64,000 nt of DNA from positions 1 through 64,000 of IMG/VR virus record IMGVR_UViG_3300034071_000801. One strand, written 5' to 3'. The notes under the pieces were generated by a model. The model saw nothing but the letters and a program-made list of their open reading frames with translations. It had not been told where the DNA came from and made no database searches. The DNA is from a virus. The position numbers and the translations under genes were made by a program. How positions within the stretch are numbered: position 1 is the first letter of the stretch; each line of letters opens with the position of its first letter. Below are positions 3,001-57,185 of this stretch, in pieces.

Positions 3001-4236
3001 CCTAATGATCAAGGAGAGTGGGAGAAAAGTAGTGACATTAAAAACTCTGTAATCATAATAGATGAATCTTCTATGATTGAGAAATCATTAATGGCAGATT
3101 TACTAGACTCAACTAAGAATAAAAACAATGTGCTCATCTTTATGGGAGATAGTTATCAGTTACAACCTGTAGGTGAAGACTCTGGTTTATTCCAAGGTAA
3201 AGTGCAAGAAGTTAAAAATGACCAAACAGAGTTAACAGAAGTTAAACGTCAGTCTTTAGATAGTAGTATTTTAAAAGTGGCTACAGTTATTAGAAATGAT
3301 AAAAAATCATATGTTCCTACAGAATCTACAGAAGATTTTAAAGTGACAAAATCTAAAAATGAATTTGTTAGTAACTTTAAAGAAGCTGTAAAAGCTAATG
3401 AAGATGTAGCAATGATTGTTGCTACAAATAATGAAAGACTGTTGATGAATAAATTAGCAAGAAATGCTAAGTTTGGTGAAGCTTCTGAAAATGTATTAAA
3501 CCCAGGTGAAACAATTATCTCTATAGCTAACTCTTCTGATTATTCAAATTCTGAAGTGTTTAATGCAAAAGATGTAAGAGGTGAACCAACTAAATTTGAT
3601 ATAACATTTACAGATAACTTTGGAAAATCTAGTAAGTATGATGTATATTTAGCATTTGTAGTTAACAATGAAGGAGTAGAAGTACCTACACTATTCTTAC
3701 CTAATGTAGATAAACCAAGTATATATCATGCACAAATATTAAAAGCTGCTAGAGAGAGTAGTCCAGGACTATATAATGCTTTAAATAACTGGATAATGAA
3801 TACTAAGAAAGGACCAAAACTAAGTCCAGCTATATCAATTGCTACTTATGGATATGCTATTACAGCACATAAGTCACAAGGATCACAATGGAAAAAAGTA
3901 TTTGTTAATCAAAACTATGTAGCTGATTCATGGGATGCTGCAAGATGGTTCTATACAGCTATAACAAGAGCAAGTGATGAAGTGGAAGTTTTACCATCAT
4001 CATCTAATGTGCAGATATCTAATGCTGAAATAGACTCTAAATTAAATGCAATTGTACAAGAAGGTGTTGAAACATTTGATACAATAAAAGATTTTTCAAA
4101 TGATCAGAAGCAACAAATTTTAACTAACTTTGCTGCTAAACATAAAATGACAACTGCTCAAGCTAAATTATATATTGATAATGCTTTAGCTGAGAATAAA
4201 GAAGAAGTAATTAATAAACTAAAAGACTGTTACTAA
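1..4236 (+). CDS. Giant polyvalent protein with NADAR and SF1 helicase domains (5' partial)
   Basis: The frame is open from the first base, so the gene starts before the window; at least 1,411 residues are visible. Counting from the Met at base 76, residues 1-650 match nothing I recognise. Residues about 650-810 form a NADAR domain (ELSNF, VEGYYQASK, WGKEFPRRLMEVRE), a family of N-glycosidases acting on ADP-ribose or riboflavin-type intermediates. Residues about 890-1330 form an SF1 helicase of the Dda/RecD type: Walker A GYAGTGKTT, Walker B IIIDESS, motif III GDSYQLQP, and AITAHKSQGSQW with YTAITRA near the end. The stop overlaps the next start (TAATG). A giant protein mixing enzymatic domains beside fibre genes fits phage polyvalent proteins that enter the host with DNA. 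Domain calls are firm; virion delivery is inferred. Confidence 0.85.
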   Translation, partial: AKLATLSEQDRKFVKDLDIILPHNTMDVGGRQYVSLSGTRTADGKQLISNRLSGYATAFVDIANNPFITKVVKSDVVVSTFMFLESIGAGNTGVIFLNQPIIEKYLEYLDNTGSKSVTNKGNIGYIKSLFPTTGKALEDVEISVEQLLDNIENYGKTGMFDALKNAEQHLILDEFIKYKLLADQLFSYTQATNYDTTRFGSSDALLKKEWGTFNASNFNLISNVNDVLGNTFIGEQAELLSKSFGSFGAIMKSELPEIKAYTLSTLKRYATRKYMSADDYEKIANLIKNSFIDYVIQNNTVMTDMIKPLLVDSETAVVDQLEKAKQKYPSIQILQDLSPVLGNRDGSAKSIELKANVKDAYSENLYVGMMRELRDASPELNDLYNNIVNVAILQGTTQSAISIRNIIPVEDYAAKIAPIINQLKANSSLKAFENGIFERNNFANKDVFTEFRPYVHTPQPNPDTGEYNEKSVRMNPNTGEDELIYFLPSFKAMRGVTQTSRKLIVLNDEFNSFQLSSDFLKIPKVVTNKEGLKINITTGLEVTKKDYALMKQKGSQDLYNAYYYKKVYTNEVDEFNNPIPLKTYNQKIKAYEYYYKQINVYGDGNRAVEINKDFKPSVIDNGGMPIQEELKDADIVNAFSAQGQEEVAPTSLPTETPIEVVTTPTQKLSGEKINIYAGTGENAELSNFAVRPFKATDDTQIGGAYIDATGKDITFKTVEGYYQASKLIYSTSSEYWTEKMDLTNKGIKLIEQFANATGAQAKSLGRTVKGLDIKDWDDISSAVMYDGLKDSFEQNPEALKKLLNTGNAELTHTQDKGKWGKEFPRRLMEVREELRPTQIATKEVRPRFEVYGNEVQYTEDGSTAQEYNSPEEAQEGLKEWLALDNQSITEEVSVEEQTNKPSIFDLRNVQIGYTSGQTKALEEISKLIDRKADGHYLLAGYAGTGKTTIAENIAKYAKQAGKAILVIAPTNKAAKVLNDKLKSTGVGSVASTIHKTIYGEPNDQGEWEKSSDIKNSVIIIDESSMIEKSLMADLLDSTKNKNNVLIFMGDSYQLQPVGEDSGLFQGKVQEVKNDQTELTEVKRQSLDSSILKVATVIRNDKKSYVPTESTEDFKVTKSKNEFVSNFKEAVKANEDVAMIVATNNERLLMNKLARNAKFGEASENVLNPGETIISIANSSDYSNSEVFNAKDVRGEPTKFDITFTDNFGKSSKYDVYLAFVVNNEGVEVPTLFLPNVDKPSIYHAQILKAARESSPGLYNALNNWIMNTKKGPKLSPAISIATYGYAITAHKSQGSQWKKVFVNQNYVADSWDAARWFYTAITRASDEVEVLPSSSNVQISNAEIDSKLNAIVQEGVETFDTIKDFSNDQKQQILTNFAAKHKMTTAQAKLYIDNALAENKEEVINKLKDCY

Positions 4237-37802: not shown

Positions 37803-38564
37803 TCAGGTAGTCTCTAAACGTTCTGAAGATGTATCTTCAGCTTCGCTTTTGATTGTCATGTTAAATTCTACTACTTTATCATACTTTCTTTTAAGAAAAT
37901 AAGTAGCATCACTATACAAATAATTTACACTATCTAAAACTTCTTGTTTGTTTTCTATCCACAAAATATAATTAACCTGTGTTCTAACTTTTTCAGTTAT
38001 ATAAGGTTTACTTATATTTAGACATTTTGCTATTTCTAATAAAAATTCTTTATCAGTGGAGCAAAAAGCTAATTTAAGTTTATACTGTTGTTTATGTGGT
38101 TTAAAAATACTATGATTAGTTTTCCTAATGTATTTATATTGTAACTTTTTCAATATTACACTTCCATCACCATCTAAAAATCCTCTAATGAAATGAGGTA
38201 TTAAATGTTTTTCTAGTTTAGGAAAAGTCATTCCTAATTTACTTTTATTGATGATGCATCCTAAATCAATTAGATTGTTACCTATTTGATTTGATACTAT
38301 ATTGACACAGTGTTGAGGTTTATAACCTTTTTTAATACTTGAAGGAGTGTTGACAATATTCTTTTGTCCTCCTGCAGCTTCTTTAGATAATTCATCAAGA
38401 ATGTAACCATCCTCTTCTTGAACTCCTATTCTAAAGTTAAGTTTCCTATTACCTGAAGGTTGTGATATACATCCATCAGCATATATAAAACCTAAAATAT
38501 AAGCTTTGTATTCTGTGTCAATTAAATTGAAATAATTGTGATTAACTTTGTACTTGTATCCCAT
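37803..38564 (-). CDS. LAGLIDADG homing endonuclease in the rIIA intron
   Basis: 253 residues with both LAGLIDADG helices: YILGFIYADGCIS near residue 30 and FIRGFLDGDGSVI near residue 130, so it acts as a monomer. Its last codons (RLETT) overlap the conserved R element of the intron, showing coding and ribozyme sequence shared. It would cut an intronless rIIA allele and drive homing of the intron. Confidence 0.9.
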   Translation of the reverse strand: MGYKYKVNHNYFNLIDTEYKAYILGFIYADGCISQPSGNRKLNFRIGVQEEDGYILDELSKEAAGGQKNIVNTPSSIKKGYKPQHCVNIVSNQIGNNLIDLGCIINKSKLGMTFPKLEKHLIPHFIRGFLDGDGSVILKKLQYKYIRKTNHSIFKPHKQQYKLKLAFCSTDKEFLLEIAKCLNISKPYITEKVRTQVNYILWIENKQEVLDSVNYLYSDATYFLKRKYDKVVEFNMTIKSEAEDTSSERLETT

Positions 38565-56081: not shown

Positions 56082-56150
56082 TGATTGAGACAGGATTCGA
56101 ACCTGTGTGTAAGGATATATGTCCATCGCATACCATTCTGCCACTCAATC
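56082..56150 (-). tRNA. tRNA-like gene with non-canonical anticodon arm
   Basis: 69 bases directly after the tmRNA. The acceptor stem is perfect (GATTGAG with CTCAATC, discriminator A), the D arm is GCA-GAATGGTA-TGC, and the T arm is ACAGG-TTCGAAT-CCTGT. The anticodon arm region (ATGGACATATATCCTT) has only a 3-bp GGA/TCC stem around a six-base CATATA loop and no U33, so no anticodon can be assigned. It may be a degenerate tRNA, a tRNA mimic, or mark an atypical processing signal. Confidence 0.55.
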
Positions 56151-56171
56151 TAGTGGAGGTGGGGAGATTCG

Positions 56172-56873
56172 CATTTTGTTAATAACTTGTTGTCACATTA
56201 TTTGCATATGTCTAGGACATGTTGTAGATTTACACCATATCTTAAATTCTTTATCATGACACTACAATACCTTTCTGGATTCTTTGATGCTGATGGTTCA
56301 ATATCAATGAGTAAAAGTTCTAAAAACGATACTTACAAATGTATCAAAATAGATTTTACTAATACTTACATAACAATTCTTGAAGAGATTCAAAAATACT
56401 TGTTAAATGAGCATGGTATTAAAACACATATATCAAAAAAAGCAATTAGAAAAGAAAACCATAATATTGGTTATTCTTTATCTTGTAATAGTAATCAAAC
56501 TTGTTTGAAACTTTGTAAACTTATAGATTCTCATCATCCTAAGAAGTTACATCGTATAAATACAATTTTGAAATATCATGATGCAGTTACCATAAGAAAT
56601 GGTAAATACACAGATAAACAAGCTACAAGAAGATTAGCCTACGAGAGACTATTCTTTCTTCCTACATTTCTGTAGGGATCGGACTATATCATCATCTGTT
56701 CTAGATGTTGCTTACTGTGGGCTCACCGTAGTGTCCCTAGTCTCTGAACCTTCTCACTTCTTCCAGTGAGCTTGGCTGCTGATTGGCATATTACCCTCGC
56801 AGGTGTAACTTAGCGTTCCAGCAATTCAAGCAATTTTTAATTATACATCCCTGTATAATGAGTCCAATTTCCA
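56172..56873 (-). other. Group I intron in the tmRNA T-loop (702 bases)
   Basis: Inserted between U55 and C56 of the tmRNA T-loop. P1: exon GAGTT pairs with GACTC in the intron, with U-G at the splice site. Core elements follow in order: P (AATTGCTGGAACGCTAAG), Q (AATCAGCAGCC), R (TTCAGAGACTAG, 56748-56739) and S (GATATAGTCC, 56690-56681), then a P9 hairpin CCTACAGAAATGTAGG. The intron ends in G at 56172. A homing endonuclease lies on the opposite strand between P9 and the 3' splice site. Confidence 0.88.
56256..56675 (+). CDS. LAGLIDADG homing endonuclease, antisense within the tmRNA intron
   Basis: 139 residues from ATG 56256; longer starts upstream (TTG 56187, ATG 56208) are possible. A single LAGLIDADG helix reads YLSGFFDADGSIS near residue 6, so it should act as a dimer. 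HHPKKLHRINTILKYH and TRRLAYERLF are typical of the family. It is the only rightward gene in the leftward arm: the gene is on the strand opposite to the ribozyme, and its 3' end overlaps the P9 hairpin. No promoter of the Bacteroidota type is evident before it. Confidence 0.85.
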   Translation: MTLQYLSGFFDADGSISMSKSSKNDTYKCIKIDFTNTYITILEEIQKYLLNEHGIKTHISKKAIRKENHNIGYSLSCNSNQTCLKLCKLIDSHHPKKLHRINTILKYHDAVTIRNGKYTDKQATRRLAYERLFFLPTFL

Positions 56874-56986
56874 AACTCCCGTGTTGCTTACTTCAAAAAT
56901 ACAATTTTATACAGCTTATTTAGGGTCAAGCTAGGCTTAACGTTCCCACCACTCTATTTAATCTAATAGAGAAATCTTGAGGTAAT

Positions 56987-57070
56987 TTAGGCTGCTAAAC
57001 CAACGATTACATCCTCATTCAATAATGAGAATACTTTGTTCATGTTAGCTTCGATTTGTGCGTTTGCTCC
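56987..57070 (-). other. tmRNA tag reading frame
   Basis: GGA to TAA, 27 codons: starts GANAQIEAN and ends VIVGLAA. The CTA-GGA-GCA-AAC context matches the resume site of Bacteroidota tmRNAs (tag GENNYALAA type). The Leu-Ala-Ala end is the protease signal. At 27 residues the tag is longer than the usual 8-15. Confidence 0.7.
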
Positions 57071-57185
57071 TAGAGCCACTACACGACTTGTGTTTTTGCC
57101 ATTTAAAATAATTCACCTTAGTTTACAGTTATCTCTCTGGCTGAATTGTATAATCTATAATAACCAGTCAATTCCAGTCACCCCC

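What the first reader, a model, noticed from the sequence alone, without database searches (positions are those of the whole stretch)
56154..57185. Phage-encoded tmRNA with a group I intron in its T-loop
The tmRNA is read from its 5' consensus, a 7-bp acceptor with G3-U70, helix P2, an LAA-ending tag frame and a T arm that only forms when 702 bases are removed between U55 and C56. Both exons and the splice signals fit to the base. Phage-encoded tmRNAs and ssrA introns are known but rare, and the combination with an antisense endonuclease in a Bacteroidota phage seems new.
Basis: partly seen in the sequence, partly recalled or inferred. Interest (0 to 1): 0.92.

Follow-up and report, generated by a model that had tools for sequence, protein, structure and literature searches.

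The report
Phage tmRNA split by mobile intron
A virus of Bacteroidota-type bacteria carries its own ribosome-rescue RNA (tmRNA), interrupted in its most conserved loop by a 702-base group I intron that encodes a DNA-cutting enzyme on the opposite strand; related viruses and a few bacteria carry the same intron family, which appears to jump between their tmRNA genes.

Summary
On the minus strand, exon 1 (57185-56874) and exon 2 (56171-56154) form a complete tmRNA only when 56873-56172 (702 nt) is removed between U55 and C56. The insert is a group I intron (RF00028, 94.8 bits) with strong compensatory covariation across 14 relatives, a -1U.G in P1 and a 3' terminal G. A 139-aa LAGLIDADG endonuclease gene under purifying selection lies antisense in it, 3' of P9. 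Nearly identical phage tmRNAs without the intron exist (97-98% identical exons). Introns 92% like the window's sit in tmRNAs only 60-89% identical, so the intron moves independently. At least a dozen further viral contigs, probably a human-gut crAss-like reference phage (cr128_1, with an HNH-like endonuclease instead), and three Bacteroidota genomes carry related intron-split tmRNAs. T-loop tmRNA introns and phage tmRNAs are each known; the largest survey placed this loop site only in Bacteroidia and found no intron over 700 bp. I found no report of the phage combination. Splicing, trans-translation and homing are inferred, not shown.

The parts
56874..57185 (-). tmRNA exon 1 (312 nt): 5' acceptor strand, tRNA-like 5' part, tag reading frame, pseudoknot region, T-stem 5' strand and U54-U55
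   Evidence: ARAGORN call on joined exons only; 95-97% identical stretch in uninterrupted phage tmRNAs L023, L024, L012, with all three alignments ending exactly at 56874
56154..56171 (-). tmRNA exon 2 (18 nt): C56-60 of the T loop, T-stem 3' strand CUCCC, acceptor 3' strand CACCUCC, discriminator A (followed by CTA, no encoded CCA)
   Evidence: sequence; pairs with exon 1 (5-bp T stem, 7-bp acceptor with G3.U70)
56172..56873 (-). group I intron, 702 nt, inserted between U55 and C56; 5' splice site after -1U paired to G in P1, 3' terminal G at 56172
   Evidence: RF00028 94.8 bits; covariation in 14 relatives; absent at the homologous site of L023/L024/L012
56660..56883 (-). catalytic core match P1-P9 (including the last 10 nt of exon 1 in P1), with P7.1/P7.2 hairpins
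   Evidence: cmscan 1-253 of RF00028; 52 pairs counted, 98.4% of cells paired, 27 pairs with changes on both sides; RNA fold z = -3.4
56256..56675 (+). LAGLIDADG homing endonuclease gene, 139 aa, antisense to intron and tmRNA, located 3' of and overlapping P9
   Evidence: PF14528 8.7e-10 and PF00961 6.8e-7; dN/dS 0.12-0.27 against 8 relatives; conserved ATG and length
56990..57100 (-). tag reading frame, most likely 37 codons from resume codon GGC (57100-57098) to LAA, stop TAA at 56989-56987
   Evidence: Alignment with bacterial tmRNAs whose tag GESNYALAA starts at the same GGC; length and sequence conserved in related phage tmRNAs

Best explanation
The locus is a phage-encoded, standard-form tmRNA gene (ssrA) that carries a mobile, HEG-bearing group I intron at T-loop subsite 3 (U55|C56). 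Transcribed from the minus strand, the precursor should self-splice by the usual two guanosine-initiated transesterifications, joining 56874 to 56171. This would give a 330-nt tmRNA with an alanine-type acceptor (G3.U70), matured by host RNases and the host CCA-adding enzyme. It would work with host SmpB and ribosomes to rescue stalled translation during infection and add a long (about 37-aa) Ala-Ala-ending tag. The antisense gene encodes a LAGLIDADG endonuclease, one motif per subunit and so probably a homodimer, that would cut intron-free tmRNA T arms and spread the intron by homing in mixed infections and occasionally into or from Bacteroidota chromosomes. Shown by computation: gene anatomy, exact junction, conserved intron structure, selection on the endonuclease, empty sites, and an intron history different from the exon history. 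Inferred: splicing, tmRNA activity, endonuclease cleavage and direction of transfer.
For: Exact join unique among 62,370. Intron RF00028 94.8 bits. Structure counts on 14 related introns: 98.4% paired cells, 27/52 pairs with compensatory change, score 0.441 against 0.147 shuffled and at most 0.09 slid. The guide sequence covaries with the exon T stem: GAGUU with GGACUC, GGGUU with GGACCC, one G.U exception. HEG domains and dN/dS 0.12-0.27 against relatives. Empty sites in near-identical phages and intron/exon identity mismatch; at least 5 gains or losses forced by well-supported branches of the tmRNA tree. Relatives in further viral contigs at the same or neighbouring T-loop subsites. Related intron and HEG in ssrA of two Flavobacteriaceae MAGs and Marinoscillum, each with a single tmRNA over the cut-off. 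Phage context: DNA polymerase, UvsX/RecA, primase, DnaB-like helicase, RIIB-like protein on a 111-kb IMG/VR virus record.
Against: No RNA data. No phage SmpB found in the 111-kb record, so function depends on the host. Rfam tmRNA scores of close relatives are modest (50-94 bits), so the pseudoknot domain is divergent. Selection on the tag is weak (pN/pS 0.63 for 35-aa tags and 0.89 for 37-aa tags). Host identity is inferred only from similarity to Flavobacterium and Cellulophaga phages and to Bacteroidota ssrA.
Confidence: 0.92

Rival explanations
1. A decaying insertion: the intron no longer splices, so the phage tmRNA is a dead relic broken by a selfish element.
For: No expression data; phage tmRNAs are dispensable enough to be absent from most phages (2.3% of genomes in PMC9004378); tag under only weak selection.
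Against: P1 and its pairing to the exon, P3, P7, -1U and terminal G are intact, and the core helices covary (P7 itself is invariant). Exons are 97-98% identical to uninterrupted phage tmRNAs, with T stem and acceptor pairing intact. HEG is under purifying selection. Five intron-form tmRNAs of this clade all keep both exon halves.
Confidence: 0.06
2. Not a phage gene: host ssrA captured by misassembly or as an integration-site fragment.
For: Phages and islands often integrate in ssrA and can carry ssrA fragments.
Against: Complete gene at both ends, internal to a 111-kb virus record between other genes. The same tmRNA clade is on 65 viral contigs and related tmRNAs are in isolates such as Flavobacterium phage Fpv3 and Cellulophaga phages phi14:2 and Calle_1. 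The tag differs completely from the bacterial GESNYALAA.
Confidence: 0.02
3. The spliced RNA is made but does not perform normal tagging: it acts as a decoy or inhibitor of host trans-translation, or tags host proteins for a phage purpose, as suggested for other phage tmRNAs.
For: Unusually long, phage-specific tags, mostly 35-45 aa. Inhibition by a tag-less phage tmRNA is reported for phage DS6A (cited in PMC11915505). Selective tagging of host proteins was proposed for phage Melnitz (PMC9004378).
Against: Resume codon, open frame, stop and Ala-Ala-type C terminus are kept across most relatives, as expected of ordinary trans-translation.
Confidence: 0.2

Closest known systems
Intron-form tmRNA genes (Nawrocki, Petrov and Williams 2025, PMC11915505)
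   Same: Group I intron in the tmRNA T loop with -1U.G and terminal G rules; subsite 3 (U55|C56) is one of the four known; some carry LAGLIDADG genes, some inserted after P9.
   Different: Subsite-3 introns there were all from class Bacteroidia, so none from phages; only 36 of 883 introns had a HEG and none was longer than 700 bp. Here phage-borne, 702 nt (HEG-bearing relatives 639-869 nt), HEG antisense.
Phage-encoded tmRNAs (79 unique in that database; phage Melnitz, PMC9004378; Cellulophaga phage Calle_1)
   Same: Complete tmRNA on a phage genome with its own tag; no phage SmpB found here.
   Different: Those described in the papers read are standard, permuted or tag-less; none is described as intron-split. 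Tags here are mostly 35-45 aa, where the commonest length in the database is 10.
LAGLIDADG intron homing endonucleases
   Same: Single LAGLIDADG motif in a 139-aa protein, inside a group I intron at a conserved RNA-gene site.
   Different: Encoded antisense to the ribozyme in most relatives here, sense in others (L086, L087, L096); target would be a tmRNA T arm.
Bacterial ssrA introns of Flavobacteriaceae MAGs (L094, L095) and Marinoscillum pacificum (L096)
   Same: Related endonuclease and intron core in the T loop.
   Different: Flavobacteriaceae copies sit at subsite 7 with a different guide sequence; ordinary bacterial tags GESNYALAA/GESNYAMAA.

Membership tests
tmRNA (ssrA) | tRNA-like domain: acceptor with G3.U70, T arm, 5' consensus | tested here: met
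   7-bp acceptor and 5-bp T stem after joining; ARAGORN call only at the exact join
tmRNA (ssrA) | Tag reading frame with resume codon and Ala-Ala-type C terminus | tested here: met
   Frame ends LAA-stop; GGC resume codon aligned with bacterial tmRNAs
tmRNA (ssrA) | Match to the family covariance model | tested here: met
   Indirect: uninterrupted L023 (97.8% identical) 56.6 bits, L024 49.9 bits, cut-off 47; the joined window sequence itself could not be submitted
tmRNA (ssrA) | Pseudoknots PK1-PK4 | not tested
   Not modelled separately
tmRNA (ssrA) | SmpB partner | tested here: inconclusive
   No SmpB in the 111-kb record; host presumed to supply it
Group I intron | P1 with U.G at the 5' splice site, P3-P8 core, P7, terminal G | tested here: met
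   RF00028 94.8 bits; 27/52 pairs compensated, 98.4% cells paired; P1/T-stem covariation
Group I intron | Self-splicing | not testable with these tools
   Needs an RNA experiment
LAGLIDADG homing endonuclease | LAGLIDADG domain and coding constraint | tested here: met
   PF14528/PF00961 over cut-off; dN/dS 0.12-0.27 against relatives
LAGLIDADG homing endonuclease | Cuts the intron-free allele and promotes homing | not testable with these tools
   Indirect only: empty sites, and intron history that differs from exon history
Intron-form tmRNA, subsite 3 | Intron between U55 and C56 | tested here: met

The most novel reading that the evidence does not exclude
Bacteroidota phages are the reservoir and vector from which group I introns enter bacterial ssrA genes. 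The same endonuclease lineage serves several T-loop subsites (3, 7, 8), switches strand orientation, can be exchanged for an HNH-type enzyme, and may select for altered T loops (for example TATCGTAT) in resistant phages.
Probability: 0.35. Interest if true: 0.75.

Novelty: new variant of a known kind. Interest (0 to 1): 0.63.

Why it matters
tmRNA genes with long introns escape standard annotation (ARAGORN and RF00023 both miss this gene), so phage tmRNAs are undercounted; the human-gut crAss-like reference genome cr128_1 probably holds one that is not annotated. The locus links mobile introns in bacterial ssrA to phages and gives a set of near-identical intron-plus and intron-minus alleles, which makes homing into tmRNA, and the reason a phage keeps its own rescue RNA, directly testable.

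Tried and rejected
A first splice finder with too strict a 5' motif found nothing, even in the window, and was replaced. ARAGORN's 26-aa tag start was rejected in favour of GGC because bacterial and divergent phage tags align there. cr56_1, cr113_1 and cr6_1, which carry relatives of the HNH-like enzyme, gave no clean split tmRNA with the finder and are left open. The MoxR-like neighbour protein found no relatives in the phage collection. Of 20 group I introns listed in 395 Bacteroidia genomes, only two could be placed in ssrA by the finder; the others were not assigned, and that search used Infernal's stricter filters. Several HEG-bearing loci (L082, L084, L088, L089, L091, L093) gave no convincing junction and are not counted. 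The Rfam model could not be run on the artificial join. I could not read the supplementary table of PMC11915505, so whether any of its 79 phage tmRNAs is of intron form at another subsite is unknown.

Full report
WHAT IS THERE. On the minus strand of the window, 57185-56874 and 56171-56154 are the two exons of a tmRNA gene, separated by 702 nt. The unspliced DNA gives no tmRNA with ARAGORN or with RF00023. Of 62,370 joins tested (21 donor x 2,970 acceptor positions) that single join was the only one called; 3,000 random substitutes and 2,000 shuffles of exon 1 gave none. The acceptor is GGGGGUG/CACCUCC with G3.U70, and the T stem is GGGAG/CUCCC.

THE INTRON. The insert matches RF00028 over all 253 model positions, 94.8 bits. 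Its borders obey the usual rules: -1 is U55, paired with G in P1, and the last nucleotide is G. I aligned 14 site-3 introns (13 from viral contigs including the window, one from a bacterium) and counted 52 pairs of P1-P9 (including the P3/P7 pseudoknot): 98.4% of cells pair, 27 pairs show changes on both sides, and the covariation score is 0.441 against 0.147 in shuffles and at most 0.09 when the partners are slid. P7 is invariant and so says nothing either way. The internal guide sequence follows the exon: GAGUU exons have GGACUC, GGGUU exons have GGACCC, with one G.U exception (L073). P7.1/P7.2 hairpins suggest subgroup IA (inference).

THE ENDONUCLEASE. 56256-56675 (+) encodes 139 aa with LAGLIDADG domains over Pfam cut-offs. 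It is antisense to the ribozyme, lies 3' of it, and its end overlaps P9. Compared with eight relatives its dN/dS is 0.12-0.27; across all pairs of the nine it is 0.12-0.44, so it is maintained as a protein. It has one LAGLIDADG motif and should act as a dimer (inference).

THE TAG. ARAGORN proposes 26 aa. Alignment with tmRNAs of Flavobacteriaceae and Marinoscillum, whose tag GESNYALAA or GESNYAMAA starts at GGC, places the resume codon at 57100-57098 and gives a 37-aa tag, GKNTSRVVALGANAQIEANMNKVFSLLNEDVIVGLAA. Related phage tags are mostly 35-45 aa, start with G and mostly end in Ala-Ala. Selection on the tag is weak (pN/pS 0.63 for 35-aa tags, 0.89 for 37-aa tags).

EMPTY SITES AND MOBILITY. 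A pattern from the conserved tmRNA core found 65 viral contigs: 61 have an uninterrupted T arm (56 by script, five read by eye) and 4 are interrupted; with the window that is 5 of 66. The window's exons are 97-98% identical to uninterrupted L023, L024 and L012, and the DNA alignments stop exactly at 56874. Other intron-bearing phages (L006, L073, L074, L075) have introns about 92% identical to the window's but exons only 60-89% identical including gaps; L074 and L075 have introns 99.7% identical with exons 83-91% identical. On a tree of 49 tmRNAs, well-supported branches force at least 5 gains or losses of the intron. This is the pattern left by homing.

RELATIVES. Searching with the endonuclease returned 22 viral loci. 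In all but one of those with a confirmed junction it lies in an intron in the tmRNA T loop; most are at subsite 3, with L090 at 7 and L092 at 8. In the exception (L085) the endonuclease lies just outside a tmRNA that has a short intron. In L086, L087 and L096 the endonuclease is in sense orientation. Three bacterial genomes carry it: two Flavobacteriaceae MAGs at subsite 7 and Marinoscillum pacificum at subsite 3, with ordinary bacterial tags. For L094 the neighbours are housekeeping genes by my reading of the ORFs (malate dehydrogenase, a fumarylacetoacetase-like protein), and each genome has one tmRNA over the cut-off. The reference crAss-like phage cr128_1 (Steigviridae) has an 869-nt intron at subsite 3 with an unrelated antisense enzyme annotated as endonuclease that reads as HNH to me; the tmRNA is not in its annotation. 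ARAGORN does not call its joined exons, so that case rests on the RF00028 match (86.1 bits), the 7-bp acceptor with G3.U70, the T stem and a GNTYRAAA tag. In 395 Bacteroidia genomes only two introns were placed in ssrA by my finder.

PHAGE CONTEXT. G000 is a 111,404-base IMG/VR record. The window encodes DNA polymerase, RecA/UvsX-like recombinase, primase, helicases and a RIIB-like protein. No SmpB was found. Uninterrupted tmRNA relatives lie in Flavobacterium psychrophilum phages and Cellulophaga phages, so a Bacteroidota host is likely (inference).

WHAT IS KNOWN. Nawrocki, Petrov and Williams 2025 (PMC11915505) list 97,179 tmRNA sequences, 883 of intron form, all in the T loop at four subsites; subsite 3 was seen only in class Bacteroidia, 36 of 883 had endonuclease genes, none of the introns exceeded 700 bp, and 79 sequences were from phages. 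Mapping their loop position 3 to U55|C56 is my reading of their figure legend. Because every subsite-3 case there was from Bacteroidia, the phage cases described here are not among them. Paper searches for tmRNA with intron and phage, or with Crassvirales, found no report of an intron in a phage tmRNA; only open-licence full texts were searched, and the supplementary table of PMC11915505 was not readable.

VERDICT. Confirmed, and part of a wider phenomenon. The parts are known kinds; the phage-borne, antisense-HEG, subsite-3 form with long tags is a new variant. Splicing, tmRNA function and homing remain to be shown experimentally.

Noticed in passing
L002 (cr128_1, NC_055885.1), minus strand, exon 1 about 3332-2903, exon 2 from 2033: Human-gut crAss-like reference phage with an unannotated candidate tmRNA split at the same T-loop site by an 869-nt group I intron carrying an antisense gene that reads as an HNH endonuclease; tag GNTYRAAA. 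ARAGORN does not call the join.
   Followed up: partly
L030 and L041 (T arm just 3' of the tmRNA core); L099 (cr113_1) about 3060-3030 minus: Unusual 8-nt T loop TATCGTAT in phage tmRNAs of two groups, each followed by an HNH-like ORF; could be a nuclease-resistant T loop next to a free-standing homing endonuclease.
   Followed up: no
L100 (cr6_1) 3342-3463; L098 3316-3413; L099 3329-3429, all minus: Rfam RNAs RAGATH-7-assoc and RAGATH-20 in crAss-like phages sit close 5' of tmRNA-like T arms or a group I intron; they may be fragments of divergent phage tmRNAs.
   Followed up: no
L097 (Sphingobium phage Lacusarx) 2426-2971: A 31%-identical relative of the endonuclease lies directly 5' of, and overlaps, the annotated tmRNA (permuted type by Rfam) of an alphaproteobacterial phage.
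   Followed up: no
L085, L089, L091: Relatives of the endonuclease lie just 3' of a tmRNA on the opposite strand rather than inside an intron; in L085 the tmRNA also has a short 225-nt intron.
   Followed up: partly
L088 1300-1714: GOLLD RNA (328 bits) on the same viral contig as a tmRNA match and a group I intron match.
   Followed up: no
window 56082-56150, minus: tRNA-like sequence (RF00005 47.9 bits) directly downstream of the tmRNA, not called by ARAGORN; absent from the homologous place in L023.
   Followed up: partly
window 37803-38564, minus: A second homing-type endonuclease (phrog_4645, 7e-37) outside any recognised intron.
   Followed up: no
L072 (Lactococcus phage AM1) 2623-2971: tmRNA (118 bits) in a Lactococcus phage that is not in the record's annotation.
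   Followed up: no
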